Part shown: positions 2,521 through 17,833 of the stretch, one piece after another | Layout: each line of letters starts with the position of its first letter | Position numbering within the stretch: position 1 is the stretch's first letter | Source of the DNA: Amycolatopsis coloradensis | Lineage (GTDB): Bacteria > Actinomycetota > Actinomycetes > Mycobacteriales > Pseudonocardiaceae | Assembly: GCF_037997115.1 (NCBI RefSeq) | Contig: NZ_CP150484.1 | Location: 2,518,816-2,582,815 of the forward strand | Direction: 5' to 3' | Length of the DNA stretch: 64,000 bases | Position numbers and translations under genes: made by a program | The notes under the pieces: generated by a model | Database searches by the model: none | What the model was told of the DNA's origin: nothing | What the model saw: the letters and a program-made list of their open reading frames with translations, nothing else

Positions 2521-2873
2521 CGCGGTGGTAGAGGTAAGGATGTCTGCAGTGTCGCCCAGATGGTCTCACGAAGCGGACAGCAGAGAATCAACGAGCTGCT
2601 CAGGCGCGTCCAAGGAACGATCATCGATCGGACTACAGCAGTGACCGTCGCCAGGCAGCAGGACGGCTTGAAACGATGCCGTGACGCCAGGCCGGTGCTT
2701 GCCAGGGAGGGCATCGTGGTGCTCGGGCACCAGAACGAGAGTCCGAAAGTCGCTCGTGCACTCCAACTCGAGGTGCCGAAAAAGGGCACGTTCGTATCAG
2801 CACGACTGGTCGGCGACGATCACTACGCCGTAGCGCCGCCCGGCGAATCGACGGAACCCGCACCTCCGATCCG
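2521..2873. other. no convincing gene
   Basis: The stretch lies downstream of the broken STAS gene and next to the end of the convergent methyltransferase. A 106-codon plus-strand frame from 2560 runs into the methyltransferase end but has no recognisable domain and no good ribosome site. I left it out as a gene. Confidence 0.4.
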
Positions 2874-4070
2874 CTACTGACGAGCGGCACACAACCTGCA
2901 CGGAGCAGGCTTCGGCCTGGCTGCGGTCGAGCCGTTGAGGTACGGCTTGAGAAGGTGTGCAATGGCCTCGGCCAGCATCGGCGGTACCGCGTTGCCGATC
3001 TGCTTGGCCACCTGGATTTTGGTGCCACACCACAAGAAGTCCGATGGGAAGCTCTGCAGGCGAGCGGCCTCCAGATGCGTGATCGGCCGATCCACGCGAT
3101 GACCGTTCGGTCCCGGCTCCCACTGCGGGTGCAGGTACTGACCCTTCTCGGGCTTGAAAAACTCTGTGCGGATTGTCAGAGATGGCTGATCCCACTGCAT
3201 ACGACCCATGACGTCGGTCGTGCCGGTCTTCTTCTCTCGCCAGCATCTCGACAGCAGCTCGTCCGGCAGGTTGAAGCGTCCGCCACCTGGCGGGATCCAG
3301 GCGTATCGCTTGAGTGATAGTTCAGTCGGCGTACGGCCGAGATGAAGGTCGGAGCTCTTGAAGACCCCTGGAAGCTCGTGGCCGAAGAACTCCACCGTGG
3401 AATCAGGAAGGGCTGTCGTCGGAGCCGCTTCGGGCAGCCCTGCGAGCACGTCGCGGGTGGTGTGCCACTCGGGTAGGTCGCCCAGCGTGCCCGGACGCGC
3501 ATGCGTGGGTTCCGGCAGCGGGATCTTGCCGATGCGCGAACCGATGACAATGGTGCGCTTGCGGCGCTGAGGCACTCCGAAGTCAGCCGCCAGCAGGAAG
3601 CCTGCGGACAGTGTGTACTCCTCGAGCAGACCACCAGGCGCTGCTTCTGCCTGAAGTAGCGCGAACTCGCTGGAGGAGAAGAACCGGTCGACGTTCTCGA
3701 TCACGAACACCTGGGGCGCCGCGTGCTTGACGAACCGGATGTACTCCTTCCACAGCTTGTTGCGTGGGTCCTTGACGTCACGCGAGCCGAGGTTGGAGAA
3801 GCCCTGGCATGGCGGGCCACCGATGATCAGATCAACTTCGGGGATGTCCGCATCAGGTACGAGGGCGATGTCGGTGTAGCGGGTGTGGTCTTCGCCGAAG
3901 TTGGCCGCATACGTGGCTGCGGCGTGAAGGTCGAACTCGACCGACATGACGGGCTTATAGCCCTTGGCGGCCATGAAACCAGAGGTCATGCCGCCGCAAC
4001 CTGCGAATAGATCGATCATCGTCAGCCGTCGTGATCCCACACCCAGCAGGTTAGTCGACACCCCTGACAA
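2874..4070 (-). CDS. DNA (cytosine-5-)-methyltransferase, DISARM-type (DrmMII-like)
   Basis: A 398-residue C5-cytosine DNA methyltransferase. All catalytic motifs are visible in order: motif I DLFAGCGG (residues 20-27, AdoMet binding), motif IV PPCQGF (86-91, nucleophile Cys88), motif VI ENV (125-127), motif VIII QRRKR (168-172), motif IX LEAARLQSFP (333-342) and motif X QIGNAVPP (357-364). The target-recognition region lies at about 185-330. It is the last gene of a minus-strand set; its start overlaps the end of the Vsr gene by 20 bases, so the two are likely co-translated. In class 2 DISARM the methylase is of this C5 type and marks self DNA. The recognition sequence cannot be read from the protein. 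Confidence 0.92.
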   Translation of the reverse strand: MSGVSTNLLGVGSRRLTMIDLFAGCGGMTSGFMAAKGYKPVMSVEFDLHAAATYAANFGEDHTRYTDIALVPDADIPEVDLIIGGPPCQGFSNLGSRDVKDPRNKLWKEYIRFVKHAAPQVFVIENVDRFFSSSEFALLQAEAAPGGLLEEYTLSAGFLLAADFGVPQRRKRTIVIGSRIGKIPLPEPTHARPGTLGDLPEWHTTRDVLAGLPEAAPTTALPDSTVEFFGHELPGVFKSSDLHLGRTPTELSLKRYAWIPPGGGRFNLPDELLSRCWREKKTGTTDVMGRMQWDQPSLTIRTEFFKPEKGQYLHPQWEPGPNGHRVDRPITHLEAARLQSFPSDFLWCGTKIQVAKQIGNAVPPMLAEAIAHLLKPYLNGSTAARPKPAPCRLCAARQ

Positions 4071-4506
4071 TATCTGGCATCGCCCCGCGAACCGGCCGTC
4101 GCGTTGCGATCACCTCGTGGATCCTCCCAGCTGCATCCGCTGCGTCCTCGTGTTCCCACACCCGGACCGACAACCATCCGGCCTCCGAGAGCAGCCGATC
4201 AGTCTCGAGATCGCGGCTGCGGTTCTTCTCGATCTTGGTTCGCCAGAAGTCGCGGTTGCGCTTGGGCCATGTTGCATGGTCAGGGCATCCATGCCAGAAG
4301 CATCCATCCACGAACACTGCGACCTTTGCCGGACCGAAGACCACGTCCGCCTCTCGACGGATACCGCGCAGTGGGCGCTGGTGGATGCGATAGCGCAGGC
4401 CGATCCGGTGCAGTTCGCGTCGCAGGGACATCTCCGCGGAGGTGTCACGTGAGCGCTGCTTGCTCATCCGAGCACGCGTGTCGTCGGTGCTGGGCAATTT
4501 GTCCAC
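4051..4506 (-). CDS. vsr: very short patch repair (Vsr-type) endonuclease
   Basis: A 151-residue protein with the Vsr fold signature. The metal-binding Asp lies in READVVFG and the segment FVDGCFWHGCPDH corresponds to the catalytic Thr/His region of E. coli Vsr. RRELHRIGLRYRIHQ precedes it, and WRTKIEKNRSRD and VRVWEHED follow. Vsr nicks 5' of T in T:G mismatches formed when 5-methylcytosine deaminates. It overlaps the downstream methyltransferase by 20 bases, which fits mutational repair at the methylated site. I chose GTG 4506 as start because it gives the normal N-terminal length of the family. In R-M-like islands such proteins can also act in restriction; that is possible here but not shown. 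Confidence 0.88.
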   Translation of the reverse strand: MDKLPSTDDTRARMSKQRSRDTSAEMSLRRELHRIGLRYRIHQRPLRGIRREADVVFGPAKVAVFVDGCFWHGCPDHATWPKRNRDFWRTKIEKNRSRDLETDRLLSEAGWLSVRVWEHEDAADAAGRIHEVIATRRPVRGAMPDIVRGVD

Positions 4507-4808
4507 ACAGGGATTGTGCTACTCGTCCTTCGGGTGTCGTACGAGGCCCGCCTGTCGATGTCTGTGAGTCATGATCGGGGATCAACCGGCGGAGGATGTG
4601 GTCCGGCCGGTGAGGTCGTCGCTCGTCCCGACAGTCTCCAAGCAGCGTTGCCGGCATCGACGGAAATGGTGACGGCTTCGGCAGGTGAAGTCTCCGCAGC
4701 TCTTGACCTGCGGATCACCGGTCGACGCCGCCTGAGATGGACGTTTGGTCGATCCGTGCACGGTAGATGCCTCGGACAGGATGTGCTGGGGTGTCGGGCG
4801 GATCGCCG
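4507..4808. other. intergenic, no gene seen
   Basis: About 300 bases separate the 218-residue gene from vsr on the minus strand. Overlapping frames here have no recognisable domains. A promoter for vsr and the methyltransferase could lie here, but I see no clear motif. Confidence 0.4.
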
Positions 4809-5465
4809 TTACGGAGCAAGTCGATAGCTGTTCGAGGCCAATGACGGATCATCGTCGGCCGAGTAGATGGTCCATCCTTTTGCTCGCAGATCGTCGATCG
4901 ACGACTTCCACATTCCTGTTTTTGCGACGTAGTCCAGGTCCTCGCGGTCGGCGGCATCAGGACTGACTTCTTTCAGGTATGCGAGCACCCGATCGCGGAC
5001 TGTGCCGCCGCTCTTGCGGATGTCCGAAGCCAGCCGCCATTTTTTTGCCAGTGCTTCGTCGCGTTCGGCTCGAATCAGAACGTACTGGTCGGAGCGCAAC
5101 TCGGGTCGTTGAACTCCGCTTTCGATGGGCCAGCCGTGTTCAACGCGCAGCTCGCGGATCCTTCGTGGCCACTCGGAGATTCCTGCGATACCTGATAGTT
5201 CGGGTCCTGAGACGACTTGACCGACATGTCGCAGCAGATAGCGCAACAGGCGCTTCTGAGCCCCGCCCAGACCGAGAAGAACGCCGACTCTGGCCAGGTG
5301 TTCCCGATGCAAGGCCATGTCTAGTCCCACGGATGCGCTGACGTCCTGCCAATCGTCTGCTGTCACTCTTTCGGCCGAACCGATCCGGTTCAGTTGGTCG
5401 ACCGCCGAGAGCAGGGCGTCTCGCGCCTCGGCGATGGCAGTACGCAACTCCTCGTCCGAAGTCAT
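4809..5465 (-). CDS. unknown 218-residue protein with two winged-helix-like segments, defence-island component
   Basis: I do not recognise a named family. Residues 1-75 are helical. Residues about 80-125 look like a winged helix: LLRYLLRHVGQVVSGPELSG, then ISEWPRRIRELRVEHGWPIE. A second similar unit appears at 155-205 (DRVLAYLKEVSP, then MWKSSIDDLRAKGWTIYS). The RIRELR-x-EHGW-x-I pattern is typical of DNA-binding modules attached to restriction-type proteins. It heads the minus-strand set with vsr and the methyltransferase and is divergent from the helicase operon. The ATG has no ribosome site; the sequence just upstream on the coding strand reads GACTATACCT, so a leaderless transcript is possible. 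It could be a regulator or DNA-recognition subunit; both are inference. Confidence 0.7.
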   Translation of the reverse strand: MTSDEELRTAIAEARDALLSAVDQLNRIGSAERVTADDWQDVSASVGLDMALHREHLARVGVLLGLGGAQKRLLRYLLRHVGQVVSGPELSGIAGISEWPRRIRELRVEHGWPIESGVQRPELRSDQYVLIRAERDEALAKKWRLASDIRKSGGTVRDRVLAYLKEVSPDAADREDLDYVAKTGMWKSSIDDLRAKGWTIYSADDDPSLASNSYRLAP

Positions 5466-5725
5466 AGGTATAGTCTGTCAGCCGCCGCAAGATCCCGCCT
5501 GTATCTGTGCGTCGAACACCACGCATGTCGTCGACTGTGTCGGGTAACGACCCGGGCGTCCGCCGACCTGGTCGTGTCACTGGTCGAGGCGGGCAGTAAT
5601 GGTCGGCGGTCGTCGTCGATGTAATGGTCGTCGGAGGAGTTGCACGTGGCCGGTCGATCGACAGGTCGGGAGTCGTGGCGGATCGATGGCGGTCGATGTC
5701 GACCAGGTATGGAGGGGGCGGGTCG
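5466..5725. promoter_or_regulatory. divergent promoter region of the defence system, with direct repeats
   Basis: This 260-base gap separates the divergent halves of the defence locus. The decamer GTAATGGTCG occurs twice in the same orientation, at 5596-5605 and 5621-5630, 25 bp apart, within a region rich in GGTCG words. Spacing of about 2.5 helical turns suits two bound protein units. The nearby winged-helix protein is a candidate binder. A good ribosome site, GGAGGGGG at 5711, serves the helicase gene. Confidence 0.35.
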
Positions 5726-8700
5726 ATGACTGTGGACGGTGCCTGGGGGAATGAAGATCCGGAGCTGATCGGCTGGCTTGAGCAGCATCGCGCGAAGACG
5801 CTCAAAGCCTATGCTGCAGACAGGCTTCTCCTGGGTGAGCATGCGAACCAAGAGGACAGCTTCAGGACTGGCGGATACTCTCAGCGGCAGGTTCTGGAAC
5901 TGGTGCAAAACGCTGCCGATGCGCAACACGACGATCAGCCGGGCCGGGTCGAGGTGCACCTTGTCGGGGACACCTTGTATTGCGCAAATGAAGGTACTCC
6001 GTTCGCCCAGGGAGGGCTTGAAGCCATCTGTCACGCTTTTCTCAGCGGCAAGCGCGATCACGCTATTGGCAGGTTCGGTCTAGGGTTCAAATCCGTTCTG
6101 CGCATAACCGGAAAGCCGGCGGTCTTCAGTCAATCGATCAGCTTCGGGTTCGACGCCGATCGATCGACAAACGAGCTTGGTTTTTTGGATCCTGATGCCA
6201 AGCGGTTTCCCGTGCTTCGCATGCCTGCTCACCTTGACGCGTCGGAGGAGATTCGCGGCGATACTGTGCTGGCGGACTTGGCGCAGTGGGCGACGACGGT
6301 CGTCCGGCTGCCCCTGGTGGCGGAGGCGGACCGAATCAGCCAGGAGCTCAAACAGTTCCCGGCAGAGTTCCTGCTGTTCGTGCCAAGGGTGTCCGTCCTG
6401 CGGACCGTCGTCGACCGACTTGGTGAACGTGTCGATTCGACACACGAGTGCATTGTTCTCGCCAACGGGGTGCGTCGACTGCGCGTCGAAGGTCAGGACT
6501 TGTCGGAGTGGCGGGTCTGGCATGGAGTTCACCGCCCCTCGCCTCAAGCCTTGGAGGAGGTCGGGGAGGCAATCAGGCGGGATAGCATTGCAGTGACGTG
6601 GGCAGCCCCGTTGTCCTCTGACCGCACTGCTCTTGGTCGATTCTGGGCCTACTACCCTTTGGCGGAGACCACATCGTTGCGTGGCATTCTGAACGCCCCA
6701 TGGCACGTCAACGATGACCGGACGAACCTCATCAGCGGGCGATTCAACGAGGAGATCCTCGATAAGATCGTTTCTTTGGTCGTCGAGGGGCTGCCGGAGC
6801 TCAGCGATCCAACGGATCCAGCGGGCCATTTCGACTACCTGCCTGCGCGTGGTCGGGAAGCGCCTAACTTCGCCGACCGCTTTCTCGCCGAGCGCGTACC
6901 GCGACTGGTTGCCACGAGTGCCTGCATTCCCGATCGCGATGGAGTTCTGCGTCGTGTCGACGAACTGAGGTTTCCTCACCAAGTGGACGTGCGGCTCGAT
7001 CCGGCCATGCTCGAGGCCTGGTACGCGGCGCCGGGATGCCCACGCTCCGTTCCTCACCTCCAATGCTTCCGCAATCAGGTCAGGCAGGCCCGGTTGCGTA
7101 GCCTGGTTCGTGCTGACGACACGCGAGCCGCGCCGGTCGAATTGTCTCCTCCTAGCTGGCTGGAGCAGATTCTCGGTGAGAGGACGGACGAGGACTGCGC
7201 TTCGGCTCTTCGGGTCGTAGCGATCACGAAGGACCACGACACCCAGCGGGAGTTCCTCTCCGCCCGAGTCCTGCCGGATGACACTGGGCGTCTTTGGCCC
7301 TTGAGCGCTACCAACGACGTCTTCCTGTACGGCAACGTGCTGACCCGGAAGGCCGAGATCAGCCTGGTGCGACCATCGCTGCTCTCGCTACCGGAAGTCG
7401 AGCGGCTTCTCCGCGGGTTTGGCTTCCAGGACGTTGATCCTGCCCAAGAGCTGGCGAAGCTCACTCGCGCGAACACCAGGAAGTGGACCGGTGCGGAGTG
7501 GGCCGAATTCTGGAAGCTCGTCTCCGATGTGCCGAAGTCGGCGGCAGAGCAACATCTGGAGGATCACCTTGCCAAGGGGCGCAGGCTCAAGGTCAGGTGC
7601 CGGGACAGCGGATGGCACTACTCCGACGAAGTCGTCATCGCCGGTGAGATCAGGCCCAGAAACCCGGTGATGCTCCTCGATGAGGAATTCCACCAGGACT
7701 TGCACCCTGACCTGCTGCGCCGGATTGGCATCGCCTCCAGGCCCGTCGTGAGCCGTGCGCTGGCACACGACTCCACTCACCTCGAGTACCTTCGAACGCT
7801 TCGTACGAGCACGTTGGCAAGGCTGCCGAAGCGTGGGCGGCCACCCGAGAGCGAGTTCGGCTTCCTCGACCACGAACCTGTGGGGCCGTTGCATGTGCTC
7901 CGCAGGTTCCACGATTCTGGTGACATCGACGCGTGCGTCGGCTGGACCGAAGCCCTCCTTCGGCTGGACGTTCCGGTCATGTGGAAGTTCGGACACTTCA
8001 CACGGAAGTCCTTTCCCTCCGACGACGTGCTCGCACCTTCACTTTGGGCGGCGCAGGAGTACGGACTCCTCGCGACATCGTGGGGACCGCGGCCGGCAAC
8101 AGCCGGTGTCGCCAAGTCACTGTCAAGTTATGCTCCGCTACTGCCCGTGGTAGAGTGGCTGGCCGCGGCCAAGCTGCCGTTGCCCGACTCCCTGGCGGGA
8201 GTCGGCACGGATATCTGGCGTGAGTTCCTGGATCGAGTTCCTCAGACCGGGGACCCGTGGACGCTGGGCGCACTGATCGGTGAGGCCGCACGAAGGCTGG
8301 CCGAAGACGATGTCCCGGAGTACGTGCCCGCGATCAGCGGCTCATCAGGCTGTCGGGTGCCTCGACAGAGTCTCTTGATCGCCCAGACCGAGGAGGAGAG
8401 CGACGTCCTCGCGCATCGGCGCCCGCCGTACATTGCGGTGGCTGACGAAGCGCTTGTCGCGCTTCTGGTCGACAAGTGGGGATGCGTTCTCGCATCCTCC
8501 ACGCTGCGCGTCGAGGTGCTGGCGGAAGACCAGGTTGAGGCGGTCGTCGCCCTGGACCGTTATCGGGGTCTCCGCCCATTGGCCACCGGTGCGCTCGATG
8601 GAGTGCAGCTCGTCGCGTGCGGTGATCTGTTCCGGCAGATCACCGGCCCGGACGGGACGGAGCGGGAACCTGCGGACCTGTTGCGTGACGGCGTCACCGT

Positions 8701-10384
8701 CTATCACCGGGCAACGCTTCAGGACGAGGATGTACTTGCGCGCCTCGCTGACGAGTTCGACCTCGATTTGACCACCGGTTCGATCAGCAGAATTCTCGAT
8801 GATGCCCAGGATGAGGCGGTGCAGCACCGCGTCGCTCTATGCGCGGCCGAACAGGACCACGCGCGAAAGCTCCTGCACCTGCTCGACGCTCGCACACTCG
8901 AGGCCAGACTGCCGACGGGATTGTTGGAGACTGTCCGCAAACTCGACGACCATGGAGGAGAACTCCAGGTCGCCAGGTTGCTCATGGATGTATACGGCCA
9001 CGACGTGCTGCGCGAACTGCGTCACGACCTCGAGGCAGCGGGATTTCCCGTACCCGACCGCTGGGCGGGCAGCCCACCTGCGGTCGGCTTCGTCCGCCGG
9101 CTCGGGTTTCCCACGGAGTACGCCGGAGAACGTGGATCCAATCTCCAGCCCGACCTCTTCGTGCTCGGGCCACCGAGGCTCGGACGTCTTCACCTCTACC
9201 AGCAGGAGCTCGTCGGAAGGATTCGGCGGCTGGTGGCCGACCGCAGCCGGGGGTTGCTGTTCCTGCCGACCGGTGCCGGAAAGACCCGAGTCGCGGTACA
9301 GGCGTTGGTGACGGCCTTCATCGAAGACGGCCTGACCGGTCATCTGCTTTGGGTTGCTCAAAGCGAGGAACTGTGTGAGCAGGCAGTGCAGACATGGAGC
9401 ACGGTCTGGCGAGACATGGGTGACGGCCGCGCCCTGAGAGTCTGTCGACTCTGGAACAGGAACGAAATCGCCCAAGGCGAAGACGAACTTGTGGTCGTCG
9501 TGGCCACCGACGCGAAACTTGCCGTCTGTCGCGGTGAAGCAGAGTATGCATGGCTCTCGGACCCCTCTGTCGTCGTAGTCGACGAAGCGCACGAAGCGAC
9601 TGGCACTGACTACACCAAGCTCCTCGCGTGGCTCGGGCTGGACTCCCGCCACACGAGCAGGCCGTTGCTCGGGTTGACCGCAACACCGTTCAAAGGCACC
9701 AGCGAGGAGATGACTGGACGCCTGGTGACACGCTTCGGCAACAACCTGCTCGACGTTCTCGGCGACGACCCGTACGGCACTTTGCAGCGTGAAGGCGTGC
9801 TCTCGGCCGTCGAGCACGAGGTCTTGGATGGTGGTGCGGTTTCCCTCAACGCTGAGGAGGCCGAGGCCACTCAACGCACGCGACTGCTGCCCTCCAGCGT
9901 CTTGGAGCGACTCGGCCGTGATGAATCCAGGACCCTGCGGTTGCTGGAGCACATCGAGCGCTTGCCGCGGGATTGGCCGGTCCTGGTGTTCGCCGCGTCC
10001 GTGCTGTCCGCACAGGTCCTGGCAGCTCTACTGCGTGTACGAGGGATCGAGGCGGCATCGATCAGCGGCTCCACCCGCATGCAGGAACGTCGTCGCAGCA
10101 TCGAGCGGTTCCGAACAGGCGATATTCAAGTGCTCACCAACTGCAACGTTCTCACTCAGGGATTCGACGTACCGGGGGTGAGAGCGCTGTACATCGCCCG
10201 CCCGACCTTCAGCCCGAACGCGTACATCCAGATGGTCGGCCGAGGGTTGCGTGGGCCAGTCAACGGAGGGAAGCCCGAGTGCCTTGTGGTCAACGTCGCG
10301 GACACGTTCGACCAGTTCGGTGAACGGCTCGCTTACCGGGACTTCAACTACCTGTGGGAGAGGCAGGGCGGGCGACGGTCATGA
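5726..10384 (+). CDS. GHKL-type ATPase fused to SF2 (DEAH) helicase, defence-system component
   Basis: A 1552-residue two-part protein. The N-terminus is a sacsin/HSP90-like GHKL ATPase: N-box LVQNAADAQ (about 59-67), G1-like DTLYCANEG (82-90) and G2 GRFGLGFKS (115-123). A long middle region has no recognised domain. The C-terminus is an SF2 helicase: Walker A LPTGAGKT (about 1179), DEAH (about 1284), TATPFKG (about 1317) and QMVGRGLRG (about 1502). I chose ATG 5726 because GGAGGGGG precedes it by 9 bases and conserved text begins soon after. The stop overlaps the next start (ATGA). Such fusions occur in prokaryotic conflict systems; here it likely senses or remodels invading DNA, which is inference. 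Confidence 0.88.
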   Translation: MTVDGAWGNEDPELIGWLEQHRAKTLKAYAADRLLLGEHANQEDSFRTGGYSQRQVLELVQNAADAQHDDQPGRVEVHLVGDTLYCANEGTPFAQGGLEAICHAFLSGKRDHAIGRFGLGFKSVLRITGKPAVFSQSISFGFDADRSTNELGFLDPDAKRFPVLRMPAHLDASEEIRGDTVLADLAQWATTVVRLPLVAEADRISQELKQFPAEFLLFVPRVSVLRTVVDRLGERVDSTHECIVLANGVRRLRVEGQDLSEWRVWHGVHRPSPQALEEVGEAIRRDSIAVTWAAPLSSDRTALGRFWAYYPLAETTSLRGILNAPWHVNDDRTNLISGRFNEEILDKIVSLVVEGLPELSDPTDPAGHFDYLPARGREAPNFADRFLAERVPRLVATSACIPDRDGVLRRVDELRFPHQVDVRLDPAMLEAWYAAPGCPRSVPHLQCFRNQVRQARLRSLVRADDTRAAPVELSPPSWLEQILGERTDEDCASALRVVAITKDHDTQREFLSARVLPDDTGRLWPLSATNDVFLYGNVLTRKAEISLVRPSLLSLPEVERLLRGFGFQDVDPAQELAKLTRANTRKWTGAEWAEFWKLVSDVPKSAAEQHLEDHLAKGRRLKVRCRDSGWHYSDEVVIAGEIRPRNPVMLLDEEFHQDLHPDLLRRIGIASRPVVSRALAHDSTHLEYLRTLRTSTLARLPKRGRPPESEFGFLDHEPVGPLHVLRRFHDSGDIDACVGWTEALLRLDVPVMWKFGHFTRKSFPSDDVLAPSLWAAQEYGLLATSWGPRPATAGVAKSLSSYAPLLPVVEWLAAAKLPLPDSLAGVGTDIWREFLDRVPQTGDPWTLGALIGEAARRLAEDDVPEYVPAISGSSGCRVPRQSLLIAQTEEESDVLAHRRPPYIAVADEALVALLVDKWGCVLASSTLRVEVLAEDQVEAVVALDRYRGLRPLATGALDGVQLVACGDLFRQITGPDGTEREPADLLRDGVTVYHRATLQDEDVLARLADEFDLDLTTGSISRILDDAQDEAVQHRVALCAAEQDHARKLLHLLDARTLEARLPTGLLETVRKLDDHGGELQVARLLMDVYGHDVLRELRHDLEAAGFPVPDRWAGSPPAVGFVRRLGFPTEYAGERGSNLQPDLFVLGPPRLGRLHLYQQELVGRIRRLVADRSRGLLFLPTGAGKTRVAVQALVTAFIEDGLTGHLLWVAQSEELCEQAVQTWSTVWRDMGDGRALRVCRLWNRNEIAQGEDELVVVVATDAKLAVCRGEAEYAWLSDPSVVVVDEAHEATGTDYTKLLAWLGLDSRHTSRPLLGLTATPFKGTSEEMTGRLVTRFGNNLLDVLGDDPYGTLQREGVLSAVEHEVLDGGAVSLNAEEAEATQRTRLLPSSVLERLGRDESRTLRLLEHIERLPRDWPVLVFAASVLSAQVLAALLRVRGIEAASISGSTRMQERRRSIERFRTGDIQVLTNCNVLTQGFDVPGVRALYIARPTFSPNAYIQMVGRGLRGPVNGGKPECLVVNVADTFDQFGERLAYRDFNYLWERQGGRRS

Positions 10385-11964
10385 GGATGATTCCCGCTGT
10401 CGAGACCTTCGGTCGAGTCGACAGTGCTGCCGAGTTGAGAGTCGCGCAGCTTCTTTCCCAGGTGGATCTTGGTACTCCCACGACCTGTCTGTACTCGGTG
10501 AGACTGCCTGTCCACGAGTACAAGCGGATGTCCGAAGTGGACTTCGTTGTGGTCTGGGACGACACAGTGCTAGTGATCGAGGTCAAGGGTGGGCGCCTGG
10601 GTCGTCGCGAGGGGTTGTGGACGTTCACAGATCGCTACGGGCAGGTGCACGAGAAGCGCGAGGGTCCTTTCGAGCAGGCCGCCTCAGCGATGTTCGCGCT
10701 GCAGCGCCGGCTCCAGGATCGTCTGCCGCGGCTCGACGTAGCGTTCGGCTTTTTGGTGATCACTCCGGATCAAGAACTCGGTCACGATGTGGAGTGGGAG
10801 CCTGCGCAACATGCCGGTCCGCGGAGTATGAGCGTCCTTGAGCTGGATCGTGCTCTTCGCCGTGCCCGAGCCTATTGGCATGAACGCCTCGGGCATCGGG
10901 TGCGAGGCGAGGCCCGCAAGGACTTGCTGGGCATCTTGCGTCCGGATTTCGACAGGGTGGCCAGCCTCGCCGCTCGGACCGCCGGACTTGAGCAGGGATA
11001 CGTCCAGCTGGCCGAGAGGCAGTACGACCTCATCGTCGGCATCGAGAGCAACGACCGTATCGTTTGCACCGGCGGTGCGGGGGCGGGCAAGACGCTGCTG
11101 GCTGTGGAGACGGCACGTCGCGAGGCGGCCTCCGGCAACAAGGTCGTGCTCACATGCCGATCCCCGTTGTTGGCAGCTGTGCTTCGTGAAGCCGTCGCGG
11201 GAACTGACGTCATGTGCGGTGCATTGGACGAACTGCGTGGAGCGCCTCCCGCGGAGGTCCTGGTAGTCGACGAGGCCCAAGATCTGATGGAAGTCGGTGC
11301 GCTGCTGCAGTTGGACGGCCTGGTCCAGGGAGGTTGGGCGAGCGGACGCTGGCGCGTCTTCTGCGATCCCAACAACCAGGCTAATGTGGACGGTGCGTTT
11401 GACGAGGAGGCGTACCGGGAACTTGAGTCCAATGCCATCGTGACCAAGCTGCCGTACAACTGTCGAAATACATCACCTGTTGTGCTGCAGACTCAACTTG
11501 TCACAGGAGCGGACCTCGGCGTGGCAAGGGCAGGCGCCGGCCCTGCAGTCGAGTACAAGCACTACCAGGACGATCAGGACGCGGCCCGGTTGCTCGACAC
11601 TCGCCTGAACGAGCTTCGGCAGCAGGACATCGATCTCGCCGACATCGCCGTCGTCACTCTCAGGAATCGTGTGGAGGATAGTTCCGCCGTACATTCCAAG
11701 GCTTTCCGAACTGGTCGGCTCAAGGATCAACCAGACCCAAGGCGGCGACAGCCCGGTACCGCTCGGCTGGTCACGACCGCGCAGATCAAGGGCCTGGAAG
11801 CGGCACATGTCTGCATGGTGGATGTGGACGACACCACAAGTGCAACGGATGCAGCTCGCTTGTACGTGGCGATGACCCGTCCGAGGATTAGCCTCTGGCT
11901 CGCCGTCAGCCAGACTGCATGGCGGCAGATCGAGCAGGGCCCCGAAAAGAGGACCACACGATGA
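10381..11964 (+). CDS. NERD-domain SF1 (UvrD/DUF2075-like) helicase
   Basis: A 527-residue protein. Residues about 14-110 form a NERD nuclease-related domain (AELRVAQLL, then EVDFVVVWDDTVLVIEVKGG, whose D...E-V-K matches the restriction-fold active site). A helicase core follows: Walker A GGAGAGKT (about 231), Walker B VVDEAQDL (about 295), motif III-like FCDPNNQ, and LYVAMTRPR near residue 494. ATG 10381 overlaps the upstream stop in ATGA, and the 3' end overlaps the DrmA gene in the same way. DISARM normally includes the PLD-fold nuclease DrmC. No PLD gene is present here, so NERD may supply the nuclease function; that is inference. Confidence 0.88.
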   Translation: MRMIPAVETFGRVDSAAELRVAQLLSQVDLGTPTTCLYSVRLPVHEYKRMSEVDFVVVWDDTVLVIEVKGGRLGRREGLWTFTDRYGQVHEKREGPFEQAASAMFALQRRLQDRLPRLDVAFGFLVITPDQELGHDVEWEPAQHAGPRSMSVLELDRALRRARAYWHERLGHRVRGEARKDLLGILRPDFDRVASLAARTAGLEQGYVQLAERQYDLIVGIESNDRIVCTGGAGAGKTLLAVETARREAASGNKVVLTCRSPLLAAVLREAVAGTDVMCGALDELRGAPPAEVLVVDEAQDLMEVGALLQLDGLVQGGWASGRWRVFCDPNNQANVDGAFDEEAYRELESNAIVTKLPYNCRNTSPVVLQTQLVTGADLGVARAGAGPAVEYKHYQDDQDAARLLDTRLNELRQQDIDLADIAVVTLRNRVEDSSAVHSKAFRTGRLKDQPDPRRRQPGTARLVTTAQIKGLEAAHVCMVDVDDTTSATDAARLYVAMTRPRISLWLAVSQTAWRQIEQGPEKRTTR

Positions 11965-14900
11965 GTGACTGCGACCCCGTCGGCGTGCGTGAGAACTTCT
12001 TCGACCACCTGCGGACGCACTACCTGGGGCCTGCATCAGGGCCGGAAGAGGTCATCCACACCCGACCGGAACACACCTACCTCGTCGGCACGCTGTACCC
12101 GCAGGGACCGGCCACCGAACGCCACTTCGGTGACACTCTCGGCACTGACGAGCATGACGAGGAGCTGGACCATCCCATCGAGATGGCGAACAACTGGCAC
12201 CCGGCTTCCGCTGCCATCTCGTTCCTTCACGACGCACCCAAGCTGCACTGCGTCATCACCGTGGGAACCTACGAGAAGGTGCCAGGAAAGAAACCCGGCC
12301 ATCGTGAGCAGTGGGTCCGCCGCGACTGGCGGGACGAGGTGGTCCTGCACGCCGAGCACGGCTCCCAAGGAAACAAGCTTGGCCTCTTCGACGACAGGGC
12401 GAAACTTGTCTGTGTCTGGAGGCGGACAGGTACGGCCTGGCTGGTCACCGTGGCATTAGAGAACTGTGCCGAACACGACCAGGCAGAGTCTCCGCCGCCT
12501 GCGGAGATGTGCCTGTTCCAAGCCGGTTTCGCCTGTCATGTCAAGGAAGGAAGGATTCTGCCTTACCCCAGCAGTGCGGACCTGTCGGATGACCCGGAAG
12601 ATCAGGAACTCCGGCTGCTGTACCGACATCGGCGTGTCTACGGGATCGGGCACGGTTGTTCCGTCGACTGGGACGGGGACCAGGACGGCGAGATCCGGAC
12701 AGTACGCACGGACATGCTGCCGACCACAATCGTTCGGGGTATGGCGCCGCCATCGGGTGACGCTGAGGTGCTCCGGCTGGCGCACCTCGCGGACGAGTCG
12801 GTCGAAACTGGTGTCCTGTGCGCCCAGCTCACGGCATTCGTCGGCGAGTACGAGAGCTGGATCGCCGTTCGTACAAAGGAAGCCGCCGGTCTCGAGGAGA
12901 TCCACAGGCCCGCCGCCGAGCGACTCCTCGAGCGGATGGGGCGCGCTGCCGAACGGATGCACGAGGGAGTAGCCCTCCTGCGGAGGGACGCCACAAGCCT
13001 GCTTGCGTTTCGGCTCGCCAACGCCGCGATGCGCGAACAGATGCTTCAAACGCGACACGTCCGAGCCCATCAGGGAGTTCTGGGGGCTCCACTCGCAGCC
13101 AGGGACACCGAAGCCAAGGAACCGAGCTGGCACCACTTCCAGCTTGGGTTCCAACTTCTGAGTCTCGCGTCGACCGCGAACGAGGGGCATACCGACCGAG
13201 AGACTGTCGATCTCATCTGGTTCCCCACCGGCGGCGGGAAGACAGAAGCCTACCTCGGACTCGGCGCATTCGAGATGATCCGCAGGCGCCTCGTGAACGG
13301 CATCCGCGGCGGGGGAACCGCCATCCTCATGCGCTACACCCTGAGGCTGTTGACCAGTCAGCAGTTTCAACGCGCCGCTACCTTGATCTGCGCGCTTGAA
13401 CGCCTCAGGGAGACTCACCCCGCTCTGGAGGGCACGCCGCAGTTCACAATCGGCCTGTGGGTGGGTGGAGAAACCACCCCGAACGACTATCGCGATGCCT
13501 TTGAGCAGTTCAAGGAACTCCTTCGCGCGCAGAAGCCCGACAATCCCTTCCAGCTGCTGAACTGCCCGTGGTGCGGTGTTCCCGTGGTTCCGAGGCGCCG
13601 GCAGGTCGGCGTCGACGGGGGAGCGAGCCCGGCGTACGGAATCAGGGCGACCAAGAGCACGTTCGAGTTCTTCTGTCCCCACGTGGACTGTCACTTCCAC
13701 GAAAGCCTGCCGGTGAGCGTAGTGGACGAGCAGATATTCGCGGAGCCGCCGACGCTCCTCCTGGCCACCGTGGACAAGCTCGCTCGCCTGCCGTGGGTTC
13801 CGGACGCGGGGCGCGTCTTCGGCAGGGCAATGCCTTATGACGCACCGAGTCTGGTGATCCAGGACGAACTGCACCTGCTGTCCGGGCCGCTCGGAACCAC
13901 CGTCGCGCTGTACGAGGCTGCTGTACACGCATTGCTCTCCTGGGACGGCAGCAAGCCCAAGATCGTGGCATCCACGGCAACCATTCGGGCAGCAGACCAT
14001 CAGGTGCGCAACCTGTACGGGTCGTCGGTCGAACTCTTCCCACCTGCTGGGCTCGACGCCGACGACAGCTTCTTCGCTCGTACCGATCGGACTAGTCCGG
14101 GCAGGTTGTACGTGGGGCTGATGCCACAGGCATTCACCCAGGCCTCTGCCACAATCCTGACCGCCGTGGCGATCCTTCAGGCGCCCTCGATGCTGGGATT
14201 GACCGGCGATGCTCTGGACGCCTACTGGACGCTCGTCATCTACCACAACAGCCTGCGCGAGCTCGGGCGAACCGTGACACAGGTCCGTGACGACGTCGAT
14301 GCCATGCTGCATGCTCGGAGAATCGACGGCAATGCGACGCGCAGTCTACGCGGCGACGGAGTCGTGGAACTCACCAGCGGAGTTCCGGCTGAACAGCTGC
14401 CAGAAATCATCAAACGGCTCGAACAGGGCGTCGGCCAGCAGGACGTCGTGGACGTCTTGGCGACCACGAACATGCTCTCGGTGGGCATCGACATCCCGAG
14501 GCTCGGGGTGATGGTCATGAACGGCCAGCCGAAGACGACGTCCGAATACATTCAGGCGACCAGCCGCGTAGGTCGCTCTGCCAAGGTTCCCGGGCTGGTT
14601 GTCACGTTGCTCCGGACGAACAAATCGCGGGACCGCTCCCACTACGAGTCCTTCCGGGCCTACCATGAATCGCTGTACCGGTACGTCGAGCCCACGAGCG
14701 TCACGCCCTGGTCACTTGCGTCCCGCGAGCGGTCATTGCGCGCTGCGTTCGTGCTGCTCGTACGGCATGGGGCCAGTCTCCGAAGAAATGAGCAGGCGGG
14801 CGATTTCTCGATGCATGATGCGTTCGTGCGACGGGCGCTTGACCATCTGATCTCAGCCGTTCAGCGCGCAGATCCGGACGAGGCAGAGGCGAGTGAGCGT

Positions 14901-15104
14901 GAGTTGCGACGTATCGCCCGGGAATGGCACGAACGTGCGGAGGCGCTCACCGAGCGCGGCGAACGTCTCTACTACCGGTCCAGAGAGCACGCCTCCCTGT
15001 TGAAAGACTTCAGTGCACAAGGAGAAGGTTGGCCGACTGCGCATTCCATGCGGTCGGTCGATCGCCAGGTCCGCATCCTGGCGGTGGGAGAGGGGCGTCG
15101 ATGA
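11961..15104 (+). CDS. drmA: DISARM-type helicase DrmA
   Basis: A 1047-residue SF2 helicase of DrmA type. Walker A is in LIWFPTGGGKTEAYLGLGAF (Lys about 423), followed by the family-typical MRYTLRLLTSQQFQRA. A Cys cluster with CPWCG and CPHVDCHFH (about 534-580) is probably zinc-binding. Motif II is the variant DELHLLSG (about 633). The C-terminal RecA domain carries TTNMLSVGIDIPR and QATSRVGRS (about 835-872). In DISARM, DrmA works with DrmB and is thought to load on incoming DNA. Start and stop both form ATGA overlaps with its neighbours, so translation is coupled in a four-gene operon. I am confident of the family, less so that the whole locus is a standard DISARM. Confidence 0.87.
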   Translation: MSDCDPVGVRENFFDHLRTHYLGPASGPEEVIHTRPEHTYLVGTLYPQGPATERHFGDTLGTDEHDEELDHPIEMANNWHPASAAISFLHDAPKLHCVITVGTYEKVPGKKPGHREQWVRRDWRDEVVLHAEHGSQGNKLGLFDDRAKLVCVWRRTGTAWLVTVALENCAEHDQAESPPPAEMCLFQAGFACHVKEGRILPYPSSADLSDDPEDQELRLLYRHRRVYGIGHGCSVDWDGDQDGEIRTVRTDMLPTTIVRGMAPPSGDAEVLRLAHLADESVETGVLCAQLTAFVGEYESWIAVRTKEAAGLEEIHRPAAERLLERMGRAAERMHEGVALLRRDATSLLAFRLANAAMREQMLQTRHVRAHQGVLGAPLAARDTEAKEPSWHHFQLGFQLLSLASTANEGHTDRETVDLIWFPTGGGKTEAYLGLGAFEMIRRRLVNGIRGGGTAILMRYTLRLLTSQQFQRAATLICALERLRETHPALEGTPQFTIGLWVGGETTPNDYRDAFEQFKELLRAQKPDNPFQLLNCPWCGVPVVPRRRQVGVDGGASPAYGIRATKSTFEFFCPHVDCHFHESLPVSVVDEQIFAEPPTLLLATVDKLARLPWVPDAGRVFGRAMPYDAPSLVIQDELHLLSGPLGTTVALYEAAVHALLSWDGSKPKIVASTATIRAADHQVRNLYGSSVELFPPAGLDADDSFFARTDRTSPGRLYVGLMPQAFTQASATILTAVAILQAPSMLGLTGDALDAYWTLVIYHNSLRELGRTVTQVRDDVDAMLHARRIDGNATRSLRGDGVVELTSGVPAEQLPEIIKRLEQGVGQQDVVDVLATTNMLSVGIDIPRLGVMVMNGQPKTTSEYIQATSRVGRSAKVPGLVVTLLRTNKSRDRSHYESFRAYHESLYRYVEPTSVTPWSLASRERSLRAAFVLLVRHGASLRRNEQAGDFSMHDAFVRRALDHLISAVQRADPDEAEASERELRRIAREWHERAEALTERGERLYYRSREHASLLKDFSAQGEGWPTAHSMRSVDRQVRILAVGEGRR

Positions 15105-16918
15105 GAACCGTGCGGTTGAGTCAGACCATCTCGCCGTTCGGCGTGGGGGCCATCATCGACGTCATGGGGGAATCCCTCATGGGTGTCGACATCAGCGAAT
15201 GGCCCTACGACAGAACCGTGCGTGTGGAGTCCAAGCGCCTTGAGGAACGTCTCGGCGTGCAGGAATTGCGGTCTCCCCCAAGCGTTCCATCGCGACCGTC
15301 GATCAACAGCCCGGGGATTCCATACCAGCGCTTCCCGCGGTGGCTCTTCTGCCAGGACTGCCGGCGCATGGACCACTACCGGGCCCAGCAGGAGACGGGC
15401 GAGTCGCCACAGTGCAACCAATGCCGCGGAAAGTTGGTGCCTATGCGGTTCATCGCAGTGTGCACCACCAAGGGCCACGTCAGAGACGTCCCGTGGGACA
15501 CGTGGGCACACTCCGCAACGGAGTCGGATTCCCAACTACGTTGCCACGATCGGGTGCTCGTGTTCGACATGGCGGTAAAGGGCAACGAAGGCCTGTCAGG
15601 GCTCGCTGTGCGCTGTCTGACTTGCGATGCCGTTCGGAATCTCGGTGATCTCCCGGCCCGTGGGGCTTTGCGTCGGATCGGTGTGAGTTGTCTTGGCGGG
15701 CAGCCATGGCAGCGCAACACACTTCCGTGCGACGAACCCCTTGAAGTGCTGCAGCGCGGTGCAACCAACGTCACCTTGGCCGACACCACGACAGCCCTCG
15801 ACATCCCGGAACCTCTGGAGGGAGTGCGAGACATCGCGGCTGAGGTGCGGCAGCATCGCAACTTCGAGGATGTTCGCAGTGCTCCTCACGGCCCACGGGC
15901 GGCAATTCTCATCGGTCTCATCGCCGATGACCTCGGAATCGACGAGAGCCTCGTCCGTCAAGCTCTCGACGGGGATCCGAACGAGGTTCTGCGCGAGGCC
16001 CGCCGAGGTCTTCTCAGCGATGAGTGGGACGCTTTCCTCCAAGCTGTCGGCTCGACCGACGAGCCTGTCGGCACCCAGGACTTCGTCATCAGTGCGACCG
16101 AGTTCGCCCGTCCCGCAGTCGATACGTCTCCAGTGATCGAGCGATTTGCCAAAGACATCGACGCGGTGGTGCTCGCCCACAGACTTCGGGAGATCCGGGT
16201 CTTGCACGGGTTCCGCCGCTACTCGGCGGACGCCGATCTGGTCGACGTGCATCTGGGGCGGCGAGGACGCGGGCGCTGGCTTCCCGCTGTCGAATCGTTC
16301 GGGGAGGGGATCTTCCTCGCTTTCAACCAACAGAGGCTGGCAGAATGGGAACAACTGGACGAGGTCCAGTCTCGCGTGAGCCTGCTTGAGTCCCGCCGTC
16401 GTAATAGCATTCTGGGATCACGGCTTTTCGAGGCAACTCCTCGCGCGATCCTGCTTCACACGCTGGCCCACCTGTTGATGCGCAGGCTCGCCTTCTCGTG
16501 CGGGTACTCGTCCGCCTCCTTGAGGGAACGCATCTATGCCGAGACGACGCCGAGGTCAGAGGCAGGGATCTTGATCTACACCGCTGCCGGCGACGCTGAA
16601 GGGACGCTCGGTGGACTCGTACGAGAGGGAGAGGCGCCAAGACTCGCTCGCACGCTGGTGTCGGCCGTCGAAGAAGCCGGTTGGTGCTCGGCCGATCCGC
16701 TGTGTCGGGAAAGTCGCGGTCAAGGACCAAGCAGTCTGAACCGCGCAGCGTGCCACGCTTGTTCGCTCGTTTCTGAAACTTCTTGTGAACGGTCTAATGT
16801 CCTTTTGGACAGGGTCTTGGTGATCGGCGACCATAGAACGCCTGGATTCTTTCAGGAAGGGCTTGAAACGATCCGATCCGAGGTGGTTCGGCGAACCCAA
16901 TCCCTTGAGGGGAGATAG
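15101..16918 (+). CDS. drmB: DISARM-type DUF1998 protein DrmB
   Basis: A 605-residue partner of DrmA. The N-terminus RLSQTISPFGVGAIIDVMGE is typical of DrmB. A zinc-ribbon-like pair, CQDCRRMDH and CNQCRGK, lies near residues 84-110. The C-terminal DUF1998 domain includes LLHTLAHLLMRRLAF, the segment AGILIYTAAGDAEGTLGG, and a Cys-rich end, CSADPLCRES then CHACSLVSETSCERSN. ATG 15101 overlaps the drmA stop. It is the last gene of the operon; about 230 bases later the recombinase remnant begins. DrmA plus DrmB is the conserved core of DISARM. Confidence 0.87.
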   Translation: MRTVRLSQTISPFGVGAIIDVMGESLMGVDISEWPYDRTVRVESKRLEERLGVQELRSPPSVPSRPSINSPGIPYQRFPRWLFCQDCRRMDHYRAQQETGESPQCNQCRGKLVPMRFIAVCTTKGHVRDVPWDTWAHSATESDSQLRCHDRVLVFDMAVKGNEGLSGLAVRCLTCDAVRNLGDLPARGALRRIGVSCLGGQPWQRNTLPCDEPLEVLQRGATNVTLADTTTALDIPEPLEGVRDIAAEVRQHRNFEDVRSAPHGPRAAILIGLIADDLGIDESLVRQALDGDPNEVLREARRGLLSDEWDAFLQAVGSTDEPVGTQDFVISATEFARPAVDTSPVIERFAKDIDAVVLAHRLREIRVLHGFRRYSADADLVDVHLGRRGRGRWLPAVESFGEGIFLAFNQQRLAEWEQLDEVQSRVSLLESRRRNSILGSRLFEATPRAILLHTLAHLLMRRLAFSCGYSSASLRERIYAETTPRSEAGILIYTAAGDAEGTLGGLVREGEAPRLARTLVSAVEEAGWCSADPLCRESRGQGPSSLNRAACHACSLVSETSCERSNVLLDRVLVIGDHRTPGFFQEGLETIRSEVVRRTQSLEGR

Positions 16919-17152
16919 TTGCCGGACGCCATAACACTGCTGGGCATGATCTACCGGACTCGGCAATGGCGACTGTGGCGCTGCATGCGCTACCAGAGCA
17001 GCCGAAGCGACCCTGCTTGGCGATGACCGCGTTGCGTGCCTTCGATAATAACGTCGTTGGTCAACGATCAGCATCGTCTGCGAACTGATGATCAAGTGCT
17101 GAGGGTGCAGGGAAACATCAACTCGGACACTCGCTCGAGAGCTGCGGCGGTG

Positions 17153-17740
17153 TGCGCATCTTGCTTCCTGTCCGACCACGTCTTCGGCGATTACCGGCGC
17201 CAACTGCTCAACGCAACACTTTTTGCGACCTCAGCGCCACCGCAGTGCAGGAACGAGAGCAGCGGATCGCCGGACTACGGCGAGCCATCACCGACATGGA
17301 CGTCAAGATCAAAGGGCACGATCCGTAACTTTGATCTCGTCGATGACCCCGACGAACACTTCATCCGCGACATCAACGAAAGACGCGCCGAGCTCCGAGC
17401 CCAACGCGAACAGCTGGAGCTACAGCTCGCAGAGGTTGAACTGCGCATACTGGTCGCACCCAACCCCGCCCTGCTCGGCGCACTCCCCATGATGAAGATC
17501 GAAGTCGACCCACTACCCCAGGAACTCGCTCGTGTACTGTTCGAAGCCCTCTGGCTGGAGGTCCGCTACAACTGCGACACCAACACCGTCACCTGTCGGG
17601 CCACGCTGAGCGGCCCCACCGTCGCCGCCGCCAGCCGCGCCGCCCACGAAGCGGCGGTCATCTGGCTCGTTGACGCTCGACAGCGCCATGTACAGTGCAA
17701 ACAAGAAAAAGGGAACAAGATCACCGGCTGCGGCCGATGA
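17153..17740 (+). pseudogene. large serine recombinase, C-terminal remnant with frameshifts
   Basis: Only the C-terminal third of a large serine recombinase is left. One frame reads FLSDHVFGDYRRQLLNATL; the text then continues in another frame as LSATAVQEREQRIAGLRRAI up to a stop near 17327. It then returns to the first frame at LVDDPDEHFIRDINERRAEL and runs through LFEALWLEVRYN to TGA 17740. This is the coiled-coil and C-terminal part of recombinases from actinomycete integrative elements. The catalytic resolvase domain and zinc ribbon are missing, so the element cannot move with this enzyme. It lies beside a tRNA gene at the island edge. Confidence 0.72.
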
Positions 17741-17750: not shown

Positions 17751-17760
17751 ATCCGTTTTG

Positions 17761-17833
17761 TGCCCCCGGCAGGATTCGAACCTGCGACACCCGCTTTAGG
17801 AGAGCGGTGCTCTATCCCCTGAGCTACGAGGGC
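17761..17833 (-). tRNA. tRNA-Arg (anticodon CCT)
   Basis: The reverse complement folds as a tRNA. The acceptor stem is GCCCTCG/CGGGGGC with discriminator A; the D arm is GCTC/GAGC; the anticodon stem is ACCGC/GCGGG with a CTCCTAA loop and anticodon CCT; the T arm is GCAGG-TTCGAAT-CCTGC. CCA is not encoded. It reads the rare Arg codon AGG. Its 3' end faces the island and recombinase remnant, as expected for an integration target, although I could not find the matching repeat at the other island end, which may lie outside the window. Confidence 0.93.

What the first reader, a model, noticed from the sequence alone, without database searches (positions are those of the whole stretch)
2874..16918. 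Noncanonical DISARM-like defence locus built from seven genes
DrmA and DrmB are encoded as the last two genes of an ATGA-coupled operon, with a C5 DNA methylase close by, as in class 2 DISARM. The other usual parts (DrmC with PLD fold, DrmE, or DrmD in class 1) are absent. Their places are taken by a GHKL/SF2 fusion and a NERD/SF1 helicase; a Vsr nuclease and an unknown winged-helix-like protein form the divergent arm. This gene set may define a separate DISARM subtype.
Basis: partly seen in the sequence, partly recalled or inferred. Interest (0 to 1): 0.85.

Follow-up and report, generated by a model that had tools for sequence, protein, structure and literature searches.

The report
DISARM-like defence locus with Hsp90-type helicase
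An actinobacterium carries a recurring four-gene set that joins the two core proteins of the DISARM phage-defence system to a fused Hsp90-like/helicase protein and a nuclease-helicase, next to a swappable DNA-marking cassette; it looks like a widespread, so far unnamed branch of anti-phage defence.

Summary
The seven genes are real and open. DrmA and DrmB match DISARM models and the solved DrmAB complex; all three + strand junctions are ATGA. No convincing drmC was found near the locus or in the genome; drmE was not found (weak control). 12 of 297 genomes of the family carry the full-length GHKL/SF2 protein, all 12 followed by DrmA-DrmB; so are 88 of 91 distinct loci collected by GHKL similarity. 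The seven-gene reading is only partly right. The co-inherited unit is four genes: GHKL-SF2, an SF1 helicase (NERD-fused or UvrD-like), DrmA, DrmB (distance correlations 0.96-0.98). The GHKL half is homologous to a subunit of a Z1-type, MORC-like restriction operon. Best reading: a DISARM-like system merged in evolution with MORC/paraMORC-type restriction, acting on unmarked DNA. DrmA falls below NCBI's DISARM cut-off, and GHKL-linked DrmAs are not one clade. New variant of a known kind; no function was tested.

The parts
2560..2880 (+). Remnant of a NaeI-family type II restriction gene (106 aa, C-terminal part only)
   Evidence: 59% identity over 116 alignment columns to residues 251-366 of the 371-aa NaeI-family protein (Pfam NaeI 8.4e-92) of locus L032
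2874..4070 (-). C5 cytosine DNA methyltransferase (NaeI-cassette type)
   Evidence: Pfam DNA_methylase 1.9e-57; NCBIfam dcm 174.7 bits, cut-off 100.65; nearest relatives come from loci with NaeI or H genes
4051..4506 (-). Vsr-family endonuclease
   Evidence: Pfam Vsr 2.6e-17; NCBIfam vsr 111 bits, cut-off 97.85
4809..5465 (-). Protein H: N-terminal helices and two predicted winged-helix units; seven relatives have a further C-terminal cysteine-rich part, HNH-like by eye only, that is absent here
   Evidence: family alignment; AlphaFold2 model pLDDT 92.5; no Pfam or NCBIfam match over a cut-off, no Pfam match for the longer relative L044 either; fold matches weak
5726..10384 (+). GHKL-S5 (sacsin/MORC/Hsp90-like) ATPase fused to an SF2 helicase; ORF opens at 5624, start by alignment 5726
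   Evidence: NCBIfam P_loop_sacsin 72.6 bits, cut-off 50; ResIII and Helicase_C; alignment of 12; model of residues 1-1150
10381..11964 (+). NERD nuclease-domain / SF1 helicase fusion
   Evidence: Pfam NERD 1e-9, AAA_30 3.9e-6, UvrD_C_2 3.6e-6 just under its cut-off; PADLOC RTasNERD-Hel 3e-17
11961..15104 (+). DrmA-type YprA-family helicase
   Evidence: PADLOC DrmA 1.2e-203; PDB 7s9v_A 7.6e-141; NCBIfam DISARM_DrmAS 876.2 bits, below cut-off 950
15101..16918 (+). DrmB (DUF1998/MZB protein)
   Evidence: PADLOC DrmB 3.9e-74; NCBIfam DrmB_fam 424.7 bits, cut-off 240; PDB 7s9v_B 2.3e-67
17036..17740 (+). [quoted passage not shown]
   Evidence: 48% identical over 137 residues to part of a 555-aa frame in G239 that carries Pfam Recombinase 9.4e-12; the window frame itself has no Pfam match
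17760..17833 (-). tRNA-Arg (CCT), possible integration site
   Evidence: ARAGORN; GC 0.62-0.66 left of it, 0.67-0.72 from 18 to 50 kb

Best explanation
It is an anti-invader defence locus with a four-gene effector core (GHKL-SF2, SF1 helicase with NERD nuclease domain, DrmA, DrmB) that is inherited as a unit, plus an exchangeable modification cassette (C5 methylase, Vsr, here also protein H and a dead NaeI gene). Proposed action: the methylase marks host DNA (probably at the NaeI site GCCGGC, recalled); Vsr mends the T:G mismatches that 5-methylcytosine causes; DrmAB loads on unmarked single-stranded or 5'-overhang DNA, as shown for Serratia DISARM; the GHKL-S5 clamp with its SF2 motor loops or holds the invading DNA; the NERD-SF1 protein unwinds and cuts it, in the place of DrmC. 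Shown here: gene content, open frames with key motif residues, recurrence, co-inheritance of the core, exchange of the cassette. Inferred: every functional step.
For: Core recurs: 12 of 12 in the family sample; 88 of 91 distinct loci have DrmA-DrmB downstream of GHKL-SF2 on the same strand, 83 of them with an SF1 gene between; median gaps between neighbouring profile matches of the core -15 to +10.5 bp. Co-inheritance: Mantel r 0.97-0.98 in 38 NERD-type and 0.96-0.98 in 45 UvrD-type loci. A C5 methylase lies near the core in 76 of 84 loci with full flanks; whole genomes of the family hold 66 PF00145 matches in 40 genomes, so well under 1% would be expected per 25 kb (inference). Four of the five loci without SF1 carry a DrmD-like SNF2 helicase and a large methylase, the class 1 DISARM pair. 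The GHKL half is homologous over about 1000 residues to a subunit of a Dcm/GHKL/PD-DExK/Z1 operon. The DrmA valine proposed to sense the DNA base in Serratia (V1296) is kept (passages of PMC9142583). Wadjet-like JetA and JetC genes lie 9-16 kb left of the window.
Against: No activity tested. DrmA scores below NCBI's DISARM_DrmAS cut-off. 8 of 84 loci have no C5 methylase in reach, 2 of them with a DrmMI-like methylase instead, so marking may not be essential. GHKL-linked DrmAs are not one clade. In the phylum sample five DrmA loci have a NERD-SF1 neighbour without GHKL-SF2, and two more a weak or divergent SF1 match, so GHKL-SF2 may be an add-on to a broader SF1-DrmAB group. In UvrD-type loci methylase and Vsr follow the core partly (r 0.56-0.60). 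Class 2 DISARM also acts on modified phage (PMC9142583), so self-marking may not be the whole story.
Confidence: 0.6

Rival explanations
1. Two independent neighbours: a decayed NaeI-type restriction-modification system (methylase, Vsr, protein H, NaeI stump) and a separate GHKL-SF1-DrmAB system that does not need the methylase.
For: NaeI stump beside the methylase; methylase distances do not follow the core in 30 NERD-type loci (r 0.13 and 0.10, p 0.09 and 0.11); cassette inverted relative to the core in L032; 8 of 84 loci lack a C5 methylase.
Against: 76 of 84 loci have a C5 methylase, of different kinds, which suggests that some mark is wanted; NaeI, counting the window's stump, recurs in 12 of 91 distinct loci and on a Rhodococcus plasmid with NERD-DrmA-DrmB.
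Confidence: 0.22
2. One reading: seven genes form one fixed DISARM subtype in which Vsr and the winged-helix-like protein are working parts.
For: All seven occur together in 9 of 91 distinct loci. The window lies in a starred 10-row DrmA clade; 9 of these rows (8 genomes, L032 and L043 being one) have all seven genes, the tenth (L050) does not; the ninth such locus, L049, lies elsewhere in the tree.
Against: 82 of 91 loci lack at least one of the seven; H is missing in 77 of 91; Vsr is found in 57 of 84; order and strand of methylase, Vsr and H vary.
Confidence: 0.12
3. A DNA-repair locus of the MrfA/YprA kind, not a defence system.
For: YprA-family helicases also act in repair (PMC12458937, parts 1-2 of 8 read); Vsr is a repair enzyme (recalled).
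Against: DrmA/DrmB match the DISARM branch; sporadic distribution (12 of 297 family genomes), low GC and defence neighbours.
Confidence: 0.04

Closest known systems
DISARM (class 1 and class 2)
   Same: DrmA-type helicase followed by DrmB, DNA methylase nearby, defence-island setting
   Different: No drmC, drmD or drmMI found, drmE not found; GHKL-SF2 and NERD-SF1 instead; DrmA below the NCBI DISARM cut-off
MORC/paraMORC restriction systems (Iyer, Abhiman, Aravind 2008, PMC2292703; section 3 parts 1-2 of 4 read)
   Same: GHKL-S5 ATPase with SF2 helicase, C5 methylase and Vsr in one neighbourhood
   Different: GHKL and SF2 are one polypeptide here; DrmA-DrmB and an SF1 helicase are part of the operon; no Z1 domain among its Pfam matches
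Dcm/GHKL/PD-DExK/Z1 operon of Arthrobacter plasmid p2MP (L132)
   Same: GHKL protein 30% identical over about 1000 residues, C5 methylase next door
   Different: GHKL not fused to SF2; Z1 and PD-DExK proteins (the latter by annotation) in place of SF1 and DrmAB
NaeI type II restriction-modification
   Same: methylase with its nearest relatives in loci with NaeI or H genes, Vsr, NaeI stump
   Different: NaeI gene has lost its N-terminal two thirds
ARMADA / Druantia / TALON (YprA-family systems, preprint PMC12458937)
   Same: YprA-family helicase with DUF1998; Vsr or NERD nuclease in some
   Different: There DUF1998 is typically fused to the helicase and partner genes differ (BrxHII-like, PglX-like in ARMADA); here DrmA and DrmB are separate

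Membership tests
DISARM | DrmA helicase: NCBIfam DISARM_DrmAS equivalog cut-off (950 bits) | tested here: not met
   876.2 bits; PADLOC DrmA models, shown without a cut-off, match at 1.2e-203
DISARM | DrmB (DUF1998) gene directly after drmA | tested here: met
   DrmB_fam 424.7 bits, cut-off 240; ATGA junction
DISARM | DrmC PLD nuclease in the locus | tested here: not met
   no hit in the locus nor among the 25 of 31 PADLOC families shown for 25 flank proteins; genome best 19.8 bits 1.9 Mb away, while four class 1 genomes match at 2.0e-45 or better, two of which gave sequences to the query. The GHKL-bearing genome G072 has a DrmC-like match (5.4e-43) about 2.4 Mb from its locus. DrmC is often missing in DISARM (PMC9142583)
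DISARM class 1 | DrmD SNF2 helicase and DrmMI methylase | tested here: not met
   own profiles find neither in the window's first 20 kb; found in 4 of the 92 GHKL loci (drmD 232-240 bits, drmMI 132-151 bits)
DISARM class 2 | DrmE | tested here: inconclusive
   NF038316 not found in the whole genome, but it rings in only 1 of 14 control genomes and over the cut-off in none
DISARM class 2 | C5 methylase DrmMII | tested here: inconclusive
   a C5 methylase is present; best PADLOC model is DruM2 2.7e-117, best DrmMII 1.5e-47; nearest relatives are NaeI-linked
MORC/paraMORC restriction systems | GHKL domain with S5 domain | tested here: met
   model residues 30-360 align to TopoVI-B, SMCHD1, Hsp90, MORC2/3 (Z 13-14), residues 31-243 to sacsin SR1 (Z 14.2); P_loop_sacsin over cut-off
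MORC/paraMORC restriction systems | family-specific S5 motif of MORC or paraMORC families | not tested
   motifs given in PMC2292703 were not scored on the alignment
ARMADA | DUF1998 region fused to the helicase; BrxHII-like and PglX-like genes | tested here: not met
   DrmA and DrmB are separate genes; no such partner among the genes of the locus
NaeI restriction-modification | intact NaeI endonuclease | tested here: not met
   only a C-terminal part remains, 2560-2880; a translated search of the window's first 6 kb finds no other piece
anti-phage defence system | phage or plasmid restriction | not testable with these tools
   needs experiment

The most novel reading that the evidence does not exclude
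A further large branch of DISARM-like immunity, widespread in Actinomycetota, in which an Hsp90/MORC-like ATPase welded to an SF2 motor and an SF1 helicase, often with a nuclease domain, replace DrmC/D/E, and into which different modification cassettes (NaeI-type, double C5 methylase with PDC-M33-like genes, or the class 1 DrmD-DrmMI pair) are plugged: a physical and evolutionary bridge between MutL/MORC-type restriction and DISARM.
Probability: 0.45. Interest if true: 0.75.

Novelty: new variant of a known kind. Interest (0 to 1): 0.6.

Why it matters
It links two families of DNA-based immunity that were described apart (DISARM and MORC/paraMORC restriction), suggests that the DrmAB engine accepts different modification modules, and offers a clear test of what replaces the DrmC nuclease. 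GHKL/MORC proteins in restriction have been proposed since 2008 to loop DNA; a system with DrmAB, for which substrate assays exist, would make that testable.

Tried and rejected
A DrmE comparison with ~800-aa proteins upstream of drmA on three plasmids was dropped as a DrmE test: none of the three matches PADLOC, and only one reaches NCBIfam DrmE_fam, weakly (24 bits, cut-off 80). My label 'class2like' is therefore not class 2 DISARM, and canonical class 2 DrmA was not in the tree under that name.

A second copy of the tRNA-Arg end as the other attachment site: only one match in the genome, so the left border of the island is unknown. GC also falls again to the right of 50 kb, so low GC alone does not define the island.

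Plasmids: of 176 records with a match none covers 80% of GHKL-SF2.

Own classification mended: a locus counted as NERD-type if a NERD gene lay anywhere near. L082, L121 and L139 have a UvrD-type gene between GHKL-SF2 and DrmA and NERD after DrmB, and they group with the UvrD-type loci in the tree. One search repeats the counts and correlations by the gene that lies between; it raised the lowest core correlation from 0.91 to 0.96. I quote.

Rows dropped: 8 of 92 loci (the duplicate L032, and WIN, L047, L055, L056, L058, L073, L075 for short flanks, so the window itself is not among the 84). In the DrmA tree (quick method, midpoint root, several long branches) two rows under 700 residues (L081, L159). 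In some searches the best-scoring methylase per locus was used, which can lower r where a locus has two kinds. Loci were picked by similarity to 12 GHKL proteins that all sit beside DrmAB, so recurrence counts hold for close relatives of this protein only. Clusters c11, c13 and c18-c20 were not pursued; c12, c16, c17 look like antisense frames.

Fold of protein H: Foldseek gives no match at E 0.001 or better, only weak winged-helix matches. The C-terminal part of its relatives looks HNH-like by eye, but Pfam finds nothing in L044's copy. For the GHKL model, parts beyond residue 366 are barely tested and pTM is 0.57.

Literature: in nine searches I saw no listing or passage that describes GHKL-SF2 with DrmA-DrmB. 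The DISARM discovery paper (Ofir 2018) is not held and supplementary tables could not be read. The preprint of Bell 2025 (PMC12458937; parts 1-2 of 8 and passages seen) says that the DISARM-like clade holds many uncharacterised classes, so this one may be among them unnamed.
Full report
OBSERVATION. Pfam, PADLOC and NCBIfam give: C5 methylase, Vsr, an unassigned protein, a sacsin-type GHKL ATPase fused to an SF2 helicase, a NERD/SF1 helicase, DrmA and DrmB. By alignment the GHKL gene starts at 5726 rather than 5624. The three operon junctions at 10381, 11961 and 15101 are ATGA. The residues of the GHKL nucleotide site and of the SF2 Walker A, DEAH and arginine-finger motifs (motif names recalled) are among the invariant columns of 12 relatives. 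DrmA and DrmB match the solved Serratia DrmA and DrmB, and the DrmA valine proposed to sense the DNA base (V1296 in PMC9142583, passages seen; placed by position in the chain) is kept.

A 106-residue C-terminal piece of a NaeI-family restriction enzyme lies convergently beside the methylase at 2560-2880. The nearest relative, Kibdelosporangium banguiense (L032 = L043; core proteins 76-84% identical), has a full 371-aa NaeI gene, and there the block Vsr-methylase-NaeI is inverted relative to the H and GHKL genes. The 13 best-scoring relatives of the window's methylase (58-77% identity, 12 genomes because L032 = L043) all come from loci with NaeI, H or both; the next, at 50%, does not. At its right end the locus meets a tRNA-Arg with a serine-recombinase remnant; GC is 0.62-0.66 to the left of it, 0.67-0.72 from 18 to 50 kb and 0.65-0.69 beyond. 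To the left of the window are Wadjet-like JetA and JetC genes and SLFN-g3 helicase genes.

RECURRENCE. A search of 297 genomes of the family found 12 with a full-length GHKL-SF2 match (E 1.4e-196 or better; the next is a partial match at 6.6e-45); all 12, own included, have DrmA and DrmB downstream. With own profiles, of 91 distinct loci (window, 10 of the family sample, 80 of the scan; L032 dropped as a copy of L043), 38 have NERD-SF1 and 45 UvrD-type SF1 between GHKL-SF2 and DrmA-DrmB on one strand, 5 have DrmA-DrmB without SF1 between, and 3 are odd: in L049 and L081 DrmA-DrmB lie on the other strand, in L120 they were not found in the stretch held. Of 84 loci with full flanks (the window is not among them), 76 have a C5 methylase, 57 Vsr, 10 NaeI and 12 H. 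All seven genes of the window occur in 9 of 91 loci. Retrieval was by similarity to GHKL proteins that all sit beside DrmAB, so the counts describe close relatives of this GHKL protein.

TWO FORMS AND A HYBRID. Of 32 NERD-type loci with full flanks 27 have a C5 methylase and 20 Vsr; of 45 UvrD-type loci 44 have a methylase, 34 Vsr, 37 two or more methylases and 37 three further genes, two of which match PADLOC's candidate system PDC-M33. Four loci (L063, L070, L077, L085) have GHKL-SF2, DrmA and DrmB without SF1 but with a divergent DrmD-like SNF2 gene and a large methylase, the class 1 DISARM pair (Pfam checked for one gene of each kind); a fifth without SF1, L073, has neither in its profile matches.

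CORE AND CASSETTE. Pairwise distances of GHKL-SF2, SF1, DrmA and DrmB correlate at 0.97-0.98 in 38 NERD-type and 0.96-0.98 in 45 UvrD-type loci. Methylase distances do not follow the core in 30 NERD-type loci (r 0.13 with GHKL, p 0.09; 0.10 with DrmA, p 0.11); Vsr follows weakly (22 loci, r 0.18 and 0.21, p 0.015 and 0.002). In UvrD-type loci both follow it partly (methylase 44 loci, 0.56 and 0.59; Vsr 35 loci, 0.60 and 0.60; p 0.001). So the four genes are one inherited unit and the cassette is swapped, above all in loci of the window's type.

ORIGIN OF THE GHKL HALF. The AlphaFold2 model of residues 1-1150 (52 sequences, pLDDT 89.1, pTM 0.57) has a GHKL-S5 module like sacsin (first part), Hsp90, TopoVI-B and MORC. 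The GHKL part aligns at 30% identity over about 1000 residues with a stand-alone protein of an operon on Arthrobacter plasmid p2MP that also has a C5 methylase, a second GHKL protein, a PD-DExK protein (annotation) and a Z1 protein. Iyer et al. 2008 (PMC2292703, section 3 parts 1-2 of 4 read) described restriction systems with GHKL, SF2 helicase, C5 methylase and Vsr, and proposed DNA looping.

PLACE AMONG DISARM SYSTEMS. In an even sample of 246 genomes of the phylum 19, own included, have a DrmA match at 1e-60 or better. Of these, own, L138 and L139 have GHKL-SF2 in the operon; L149 has a partial GHKL match on the other strand; five (L143, L144, L146, L148, L150) have class 1-type genes with drmC and L147 drmC alone; five (L133, L134, L137, L140, L141) have NERD-SF1 without GHKL-SF2, L135 a weak NERD match, L136 a divergent UvrD-type and a weak NERD match; L142 and L145 have none of these. 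In the DrmA tree of 125 rows, 44 UvrD-type DrmAs form one group (support 98), with the three UvrD-then-NERD loci L082, L121 and L139 next to it and class 1 nearby; 40 NERD-type rows, the four hybrids and L073 form another. GHKL-SF2 has thus met DrmAB at least twice, or was lost in between; rooting is unsure. NCBI's DISARM DrmA cut-off is not reached (876.2 of 950 bits) while DrmB's is. I therefore do not file it as a DISARM member, but it very probably works like one.

MECHANISM. Shown: parts, open frames, motif residues, co-inheritance. From the literature: Serratia DrmAB binds single-stranded and 5'-overhang DNA, its ATPase is lowered by methylated DNA, and DrmC is dispensable (PMC9142583, passages). 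Inferred: methylase marks self, Vsr guards against deamination damage, GHKL-SF2 clamps or loops DNA, NERD-SF1 cuts. The NaeI site GCCGGC is recalled.

NOVELTY. In nine full-text searches I saw no description of GHKL-SF2 with DrmA-DrmB. The preprint of Bell 2025 (PMC12458937), with no occurrence of GHKL or sacsin in its main text, states that many DISARM-like classes remain uncharacterised (figure legend passage). New variant of a known kind.

Noticed in passing
L160:3778-10468 (genome just left of the window): Wadjet-like JetA2 (DUF2397) and JetC2 genes next to each other; no JetB or JetD among the 25 of 31 PADLOC families shown for the flank.
   Followed up: partly
L160:16225-19901 and window 1-474: Two SLFN-g3 (DUF2075-type, recalled) helicase genes, divergent, the second running into the window.
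   Followed up: no
L044-L049, L072 (family H): Relatives of the window's winged-helix-like protein have an extra C-terminal cysteine-rich part, HNH-like by eye; Pfam finds no family in L044's copy.
   Followed up: partly
L125:7146-18607: Rhodococcus opacus B4 plasmid pROB02 carries NERD-DrmA-DrmB with Vsr, NaeI, an annotated HNH gene and a C5 methylase; no GHKL-SF2 match in the 21 kb held.
   Followed up: partly
L063, L070, L077, L085: Hybrid loci: GHKL-SF2 with DrmA-DrmB and a divergent DrmD-like helicase plus a large methylase.
   Followed up: partly
L123:5117-13967: Streptomyces plasmid DrmA-DrmB preceded by a 1273-aa protein annotated as sigma factor that matches PADLOC MzaA.
   Followed up: no
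L049, L081, L120: Loci in which DrmA-DrmB lie on the other strand from GHKL-SF2 (L049, L081) or were not found in the stretch held (L120).
   Followed up: no
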